A stretch of 64,000 nt of DNA, from the NCBI GenBank assembly GCA_002007465.1, contig LNAC01000735.1, forward strand, positions 273,891 to 337,890, in the 5' to 3' direction. Positions 6,054-6,086 of this stretch are shown in pieces. The notes under the pieces were generated by a model. It was not told the DNA's origin and made no database searches. It was given only the letters and a program-made list of their open reading frames with translations. A program made the position numbers and the translations under genes. How positions within the stretch are numbered: position 1 is the stretch's first letter; every line of letters begins with the position of its first letter. Source of the DNA: Ailurus styani (lineage: Eukaryota > Chordata > Mammalia > Carnivora > Ailuridae).

Positions 6054-6086
6054 GCACTGATGTTCTTTACATTGGCCCTCTGAAAG
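6054..6086 (+). CDS. FERMT2: Candidate 33-nt in-frame alternative microexon of FERMT2
   Basis: The segment is preceded by TATAG and followed by GTGAGC. The 100 bases before it (5949-6051) are mostly pyrimidine and contain no AG. A branch-point match, TTTAC, has its A at 6021, 32 bases before the junction. The flanking exons join in phase 1, and in that phase the segment reads (G)TDVLYIGPLKG with no stop. The other two frames contain TGA. Length is divisible by three, so inclusion adds 11 residues at Gly176, in the loop between F1 and F2 that I recall being removed for crystallisation. I cannot confirm it in reference isoforms from memory. A well-placed decoy exon is the alternative. Confidence 0.62.

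What the first reader, a model, noticed from the sequence alone, without database searches (positions are those of the whole stretch)
6054..6086. Candidate 33-nt FERMT2 microexon adding TDVLYIGPLKG to the F1-F2 loop
Several independent signals agree. It has AG and GTGAGC boundaries and about 100 bases of pyrimidine-rich, AG-free sequence upstream. A branch-point match lies 32 bases before the junction. Length is a multiple of three. Only one of three frames is open, and it is the frame demanded by the phase-1 junctions on both sides. The added residues would sit just before Ser177 and 17 residues before Tyr193, in a disordered loop linked to phosphorylation, so inclusion could change signalling without touching the folded lobes. 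I cannot place it in a reference isoform from memory.
Basis: partly seen in the sequence, partly recalled or inferred. Interest (0 to 1): 0.85.

Follow-up and report, generated by a model that had tools for sequence, protein, structure and literature searches.

The report
Ancient optional exon in kindlin-2 gene
The 33 bases are a real optional exon of the cell-adhesion gene FERMT2 (kindlin-2), kept almost unchanged from lamprey to mammals and already present in predicted isoforms, and it inserts a tyrosine motif into a regulatory loop in a way that seems little studied.

Summary
Bases 6054-6086 form a 33-nt, frame-preserving cassette exon of FERMT2. Its acceptor is the most pyrimidine-rich of the twelve I located, and its donor ties for best of eleven. 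A rule-based scan of the window returned on the gene's strand only this exon and a 21-nt site that fits the FERMT2 microexon already in print. The identical 11 residues sit at the same place in nine listed mammalian proteins, including rat, marmoset, stoat and pangolin; close variants occur in koala, turtle, birds, snake, frog, ray, teleosts and lamprey. One ray species has predicted isoforms with and without it, so it is alternative. It is therefore not a new exon, but my searches found no paper discussing it. At 33 nt it exceeds strict microexon limits (27 or 30 nt). Function is inferred: the insert adds a conserved [DE]-x-[LIV]-Y-I-G-P motif that fits an Abl/Src site and Crk-type SH2 docking, nine residues before Tyr179 (Y-S-S-P), and it splits the published CDK1 phospho-degron between Ser175 and Ser177. 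A sturgeon with Phe for Tyr argues against a universal phosphotyrosine role. Junction reads and tissue specificity were not tested.

The parts
6054..6086 (+). 33-nt cassette exon of FERMT2, phase 1 on both sides, adds TDVLYIGPLKG
5949..6053 (+). Acceptor region: 103 AG-free, pyrimidine-rich nt ending in TATAG
   Evidence: 6 TTCT and 0 TGC in the last 110 nt
6018..6022 (+). Candidate branch point TTTAC, A at 6021
   Evidence: motif match only
6087..6092 (+). Donor GTGAGC; AAG|GTGAGC matches MAG|GTRAGT at 8 of 9
   Evidence: consensus recalled
6415..6640 (+). Next constitutive exon, begins (G)SIYSSPGLYSKTMTPTYD with Ser177, Tyr179, Ser181 and Tyr193
23120..23140 (+). Separate 21-nt FERMT2 exon, PGYVRDL; served as an unplanned positive control in the scan

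Best explanation
It is a genuine, alternatively spliced, in-frame 33-nt exon of FERMT2 that was present in the common ancestor of lampreys and jawed vertebrates. Supported by sequence and by predicted isoforms: the exon, its splice sites, frame, alternative use and conservation. Inferred: a strong acceptor with a long PTB-type pyrimidine tract keeps inclusion regulated. When included, the disordered F1 loop of kindlin-2 gains [ST]-[DE]-[VI]-[LI]-Y-I-G-P-[LV]-K-G just before Ser177. Acidic at -3, aliphatic at -1 and proline at +3 fit Abl/Src-family phosphorylation and recognition of phospho-YxxP by Crk-type SH2 domains. With Tyr179 it would make a tandem YxxP pair (YIGP...YSSP), so inclusion would retune the adhesion signalling and turnover that this loop already controls by phosphorylation. 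The exon itself is close to certain (0.97); the YxxP docking step is about 0.4. The confidence given is for a real regulated exon whose kept letters, not just its length, matter for the loop.
For: Rat X4 matches the window exon exactly. Of 145 different proteins listed by three searches, 39 have clean flanks and an IGP insert and 68 skip it; with no rule on the residue before IGP it is Tyr in 37 and Phe in 2 of those 39, and Lys/Arg follows in all 39. By the motif rule 43 of 145 carry it, acidic at -3 in 40 and aliphatic at -2 and -1 in all 43. Lamprey has KDVLYIGPVRG. Hypanus sabinus X5 has it and X4 lacks it. P0012, a 2,095-bp contig encoding about 358 kindlin-2 residues, contains it. Splice sites are as strong as or stronger than those of the other located exons. 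Rat X4 has exactly two YxxP motifs, the exon's and Tyr179's. Src and Abl families are described as targeting YxxP and CRK/CRKL SH2 as binding phospho-YxxP (PMC6029619, PMC5043372, passages). Tyr179 is a listed phosphosite (PMC8067640, passage).
Against: No junction reads seen; most records are gene models. P0012 is a chimera with an LSM-domain protein. Both sturgeon copies have Phe for Tyr; lamprey has Phe at the Tyr179 place. About 0.96 YxxP is expected by chance in rat kindlin-2. Hagfish P0122 shows no insert. No phosphorylation of this tyrosine was found or looked up in a phosphosite database. The fragment search gave no protein with the insert.
Confidence: 0.7

Rival explanations
1. The insert works mainly by interrupting the mitotic phospho-degron. 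CDK1-cyclin B1 phosphorylates Ser181 and, more weakly, Ser175, Ser177 and Ser180, and this recruits CUL9-FBXL10. The exon enters between Gly176 and Ser177, moves Ser175 eleven residues away and so changes kindlin-2 stability, perhaps in cells that no longer divide.
For: Position of the insert inside the cluster GpS175-G-pS177-IY-pS180-pS181-PGLYSK (PMC9106588, passages). Mutating the neighbours of Ser181 stabilised kindlin-2 further than S181A alone (same passages). A Fermt2 cassette exon, not identified, is included in rat aorta tissue and on RBPMS overexpression (PMC6613909, passages).
Against: Ser181-Pro itself is left intact. Mere splitting would not need YIGPxKG to be kept from lamprey to mammals. 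That paper's held main text does not mention splicing.
Confidence: 0.2
2. The insert is a phosphorylation-independent short motif or membrane contact: a hydrophobic VLYI patch with a lysine added to a loop that binds acidic lipids, or a docking peptide for an unknown partner.
For: IGP is kept while Tyr can be Phe, which suits an aromatic contact. The F1 loop of kindlin-3 is unfolded and binds negatively charged vesicles (PMC4839668, abstract).
Against: Tyr in 37 of 39 clean inserts; no partner known; the structure prediction was useless (mean pLDDT 35).
Confidence: 0.3
3. Splicing noise or a prediction artefact copied between genomes.
For: Most records are predicted isoforms, and 9 of 145 listed proteins carry other inserts here that look like intron read-through in gene models.
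Against: Same frame, place and sequence core from lamprey to mammals; most pyrimidine-rich acceptor of the twelve located; contig P0012 spans the insert.
Confidence: 0.02

Closest known systems
Predicted kindlin-2 isoforms with this insert (rat X4, Callithrix jacchus X5, Mustela erminea X5, Manis javanica X3; variants in Hypanus sabinus X5, Lampetra fluviatilis X3)
   Same: Same gene, place and frame; the four mammals have the identical 11 residues
   Different: Nothing of substance; those are gene models in other species
21-nt FERMT2 microexon (PMC8627023 Table 3, passage; window 23120-23140)
   Same: Short, in-frame exon of the same gene with a long pyrimidine tract
   Different: Other place, phase 0, other residues; 6 TGC in the 110 nt upstream against 0 here. 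The match to the published one is by gene, length and nearness to the gene end (gene end recalled), not by coordinates
RBPMS-activated Fermt2 cassette exon of rat smooth muscle (PMC6613909, passages)
   Same: Same gene, cassette exon
   Different: The text does not say which exon; no CACN1-12CAC within 250 nt downstream of either short exon in this window
Paired YxxP sites of paxillin and the YxxP array of BCAR1 (PMC5043372, passages)
   Same: Focal-adhesion protein with YxxP motifs in a flexible region
   Different: Kindlin-2 would have two at most, one of them optional; no phosphorylation or CRK binding shown

Membership tests
Alternative cassette exon of FERMT2 | Frame-preserving exon between known exons with AG and GT boundaries | tested here: met
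Alternative cassette exon of FERMT2 | Both inclusion and skipping forms in one species | tested here: met
   Hypanus sabinus X5 and X4, predicted isoforms; no reads seen
Alternative cassette exon of FERMT2 | Junction reads in RNA-seq | not testable with these tools
   Only one spliced contig, P0012, chimeric and without an organism name
Strict microexon | Length 3-27 nt (or up to 30 nt) | tested here: not met
   33 nt; limits and in listings
Neural SRRM4-type exon | UGC motifs just upstream of the acceptor (recalled) | tested here: not met
   0 TGC in 110 nt, background 1.23; the 21-nt exon has 6
CRK/CRKL phospho-YxxP docking site | Y-x-x-P sequence, conserved | tested here: met
   37 of 39 clean IGP inserts; sturgeon has Phe
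CRK/CRKL phospho-YxxP docking site | Tyrosine phosphorylation and SH2 binding | not testable with these tools
   needs bench work
RBPMS-activated exon | CACN1-12CAC in the downstream intron flank | tested here: not met
   0 in 250 nt, background 0.66; the rat sequence was not examined

The most novel reading that the evidence does not exclude
Kindlin-2 carries a vertebrate-wide splice switch that changes how one loop reads kinases. Inclusion adds a second YxxP beside Tyr179, so kindlin-2 itself becomes a paxillin-like Crk/CrkL docking scaffold under Abl/Src, and at the same time splits the CDK1 phospho-degron, so that adhesions of differentiated, non-dividing cells are stabilised.
Probability: 0.12. 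Interest if true: 0.7.

Novelty: already known. Interest (0 to 1): 0.42.

Why it matters
Kindlin-2 is a core integrin activator (recalled), and its F1 loop is where Src (Tyr193) and CDK1 (Ser181) act on it. An optional exon kept since the common ancestor with lampreys and placed inside that phospho-cluster may be missing from many experiments: of the seven PDB sequences matched, the two that align across the loop both lack it. Which form a tissue makes could change how adhesions signal and turn over, and this can be tested with two isoforms.

Tried and rejected
Chance pseudo-exon: rejected by conservation and the scan. Identity with the published 21-nt FERMT2 microexon: rejected, since a separate 21-nt exon lies at 23120-23140. 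Strict microexon and SRRM4-type regulation: not met. RBPMS exon identity: left open. DNA searches for the exon in viral and prokaryote contigs: 0 matches in each, expected and uninformative. A 120-residue query meant to catch short transcript fragments gave 1 protein at E<=0.001 from 33 candidates, a fish form without the insert: no support from that route. Structure prediction on 40 of the 145 listed proteins gave mean pLDDT 35 and pTM 0.23 and was discarded; no fold search was run. Rfam scan of the window: 0 matches at gathering scores.

Literature: the insert's letters gave 0 papers. FERMT2 plus microexon gave 2 papers: one names only the 21-nt exon; in the other the word microexon stands only in the reference list. 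Searches were seen as listings (up to 20 papers each of up to 815 that matched), and I recognised none describing this exon. Passages of PMC3882056, PMC8187152 and PMC12721327 gave nothing on FERMT2 splicing. The library holds open-licence papers only.

Clusters of hundreds of members behind P0011, P0027 and P0034 were not counted as evidence, because 90% clustering can mix forms. Of 165 and 157 matches only the best 120 each were listed; the rest were not seen.

Full report
What is there. The window holds the later part of FERMT2 on the plus strand. Rat kindlin-2 (isoform X4, P0001) matches from the 33-nt exon at 6054 to the last codon ending at 25879, followed by TGA. The exon reads GCACTGATGTTCTTTACATTGGCCCTCTGAAAG between TTTTCTATAG and GTGAGC. 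Its donor matches MAG|GTRAGT (recalled consensus) at 8 of 9 places; of the ten other donors located, three reach 8 and none more. Its acceptor is the only one of twelve located with pyrimidine at all 16 places from -20 to -5, and it has the longest AG-free stretch, 103 nt. One exon near 24170-24346 was not placed exactly and is not in these counts.

Is it more than chance. A scan with fixed rules found two candidates on the plus strand and one on the minus strand in 64 kb. Both plus-strand candidates are FERMT2 short exons: this one and 23120-23140. The latter translates as PGYVRDL (by eye) and fits the 21-nt FERMT2 microexon listed in PMC8627023 (passage) by gene, length and nearness to the gene end (the last recalled). 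The minus-strand site is not open in phase 1. Fifty simulated first-order Markov sequences give 0.44 open candidates per strand, 0.02 with 90 or more AG-free nt. The rules were chosen after seeing the exon, so this is a control, not a blind test.

Conservation. A protein search restricted to the region around the insert listed 120 of 165 matches. With two further searches 145 different proteins were examined. By a rule on the flanks alone, 68 skip the exon, 39 carry an insert with IGP, 9 carry another insert and 29 lack clean flanks. In those 39 the residue before IGP is Tyr in 37 and Phe in 2, Lys or Arg follows in all 39 and Gly after it in 38. By a looser motif rule 43 of 145 carry the insert; that rule fixes [YF]IGP, the basic residue and the last Gly, so only the other places are informative: acidic at -3 in 40, Val or Ile at -2 and Leu, Ile or Val at -1 in all 43. 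The three non-acidic cases are fish models (P0038, P0039, P0117) whose upstream junctions look mispredicted. Nine proteins share TDVLYIGPLKG exactly: rat, marmoset, three bats, stoat, tree shrew, yak and pangolin. Koala has PDVLYIGPLKG, birds TDILYIGPVKG, the ray SDVLYIGPSKG and lamprey KDVLYIGPVRG. Hagfish P0122 shows no insert, a skip form or a loss. No kindlin-1 or kindlin-3 protein was recognised among the listed hits; the searches were not designed for them.

Is it alternative and is it spliced. Hypanus sabinus and Scleropages formosus each have records with and without the insert. P0012 comes from a 2,095-bp contig yet encodes about 358 kindlin-2 residues, a stretch that in this window is broken by introns of 342, 2,038 and 3,659 nt, so it must derive from RNA (inference). 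Its tail is an LSM-domain protein (PF01423), so the contig is chimeric. Predicted isoforms are gene models; I saw no reads, and the upstream exon lies outside the window.

Where it sits. In kindlin-2 numbering the insert enters between Gly176 and Ser177 of the long F1 loop. Phosphosites listed near it include Thr172, Ser175, Ser177, Tyr179, Ser180, Ser181, Tyr185, Ser186, Thr192 and Tyr193, and Src phosphorylation of Tyr193 is reported (PMC8067640, passages). CDK1-cyclin B1 phosphorylates Ser181, with weaker phosphorylation of Ser175, Ser177 and Ser180, making a degron for CUL9-FBXL10 (PMC9106588, passages); its held text does not contain the words splice or splicing. Of seven PDB sequences matched, the two that align across the loop (8tee, 8tec) lack the insert; the other five match only after it.

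How it most likely works. The kept features are acidic at -3, aliphatic at -1, Tyr, and Pro at +3. Src- and Abl-family kinases are described as targeting YxxP, and CRK/CRKL SH2 domains bind phospho-YxxP (PMC6029619 and PMC5043372, passages). The acidic -3 and aliphatic -1 preferences are recalled, not from a call. Rat X4 has exactly two YxxP motifs: YIGP at 188 in the exon and YSSP at 197, which is Tyr179 of the common form. Inclusion would make a tandem pair. Against this: sturgeon has Phe, lamprey lacks the second Tyr, and 0.96 YxxP is expected by chance. Degron splitting and a phosphorylation-independent motif remain open.

Regulation. In the 110 nt upstream of the 33-nt exon there are 6 TTCT and 0 TGC (background 1.06 and 1.23); the 21-nt exon has 6 and 6. 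TTCT is expected in any pyrimidine tract, so PTB control is only a suggestion; the TGC contrast suggests that the two exons are controlled differently (motif meanings recalled). An RBPMS-activated Fermt2 cassette exon is included in rat aorta tissue and on RBPMS overexpression, but the text does not identify it (PMC6613909, passages). FERMT2 'exon 11' inclusion rises in postnatal heart (PMC12925949, passages); which exon that is was not resolved.

Verdict. It is not new to annotation, and by length it is a short cassette exon rather than a strict microexon. The interest lies in its position inside the loop's phosphorylation cluster and its conserved tyrosine motif, which I found discussed in no paper (searches).

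Noticed in passing
23120-23140: Second short FERMT2 exon, PGYVRDL, with 6 TGC in the 110 nt upstream; stoat P0005 reads PGYIRDL with eight further residues before it.
   Followed up: partly
P0012 (2,095-bp contig): Kindlin-2 start fused to an LSM-domain protein, probably an assembly chimera.
   Followed up: partly
P0022 and P0024: Both Chinese sturgeon kindlin-2 copies have Phe where the other clean IGP inserts have Tyr.
   Followed up: partly
3580-4056, minus strand: 158-residue open frame that looks like the end of a LINE-1 ORF2 (recalled resemblance) inside the intron before the exon.
   Followed up: no
7619-7751, 44960-45131, 47647: Runs of N: assembly gaps or masked bases, the first in a FERMT2 intron.
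   Followed up: no
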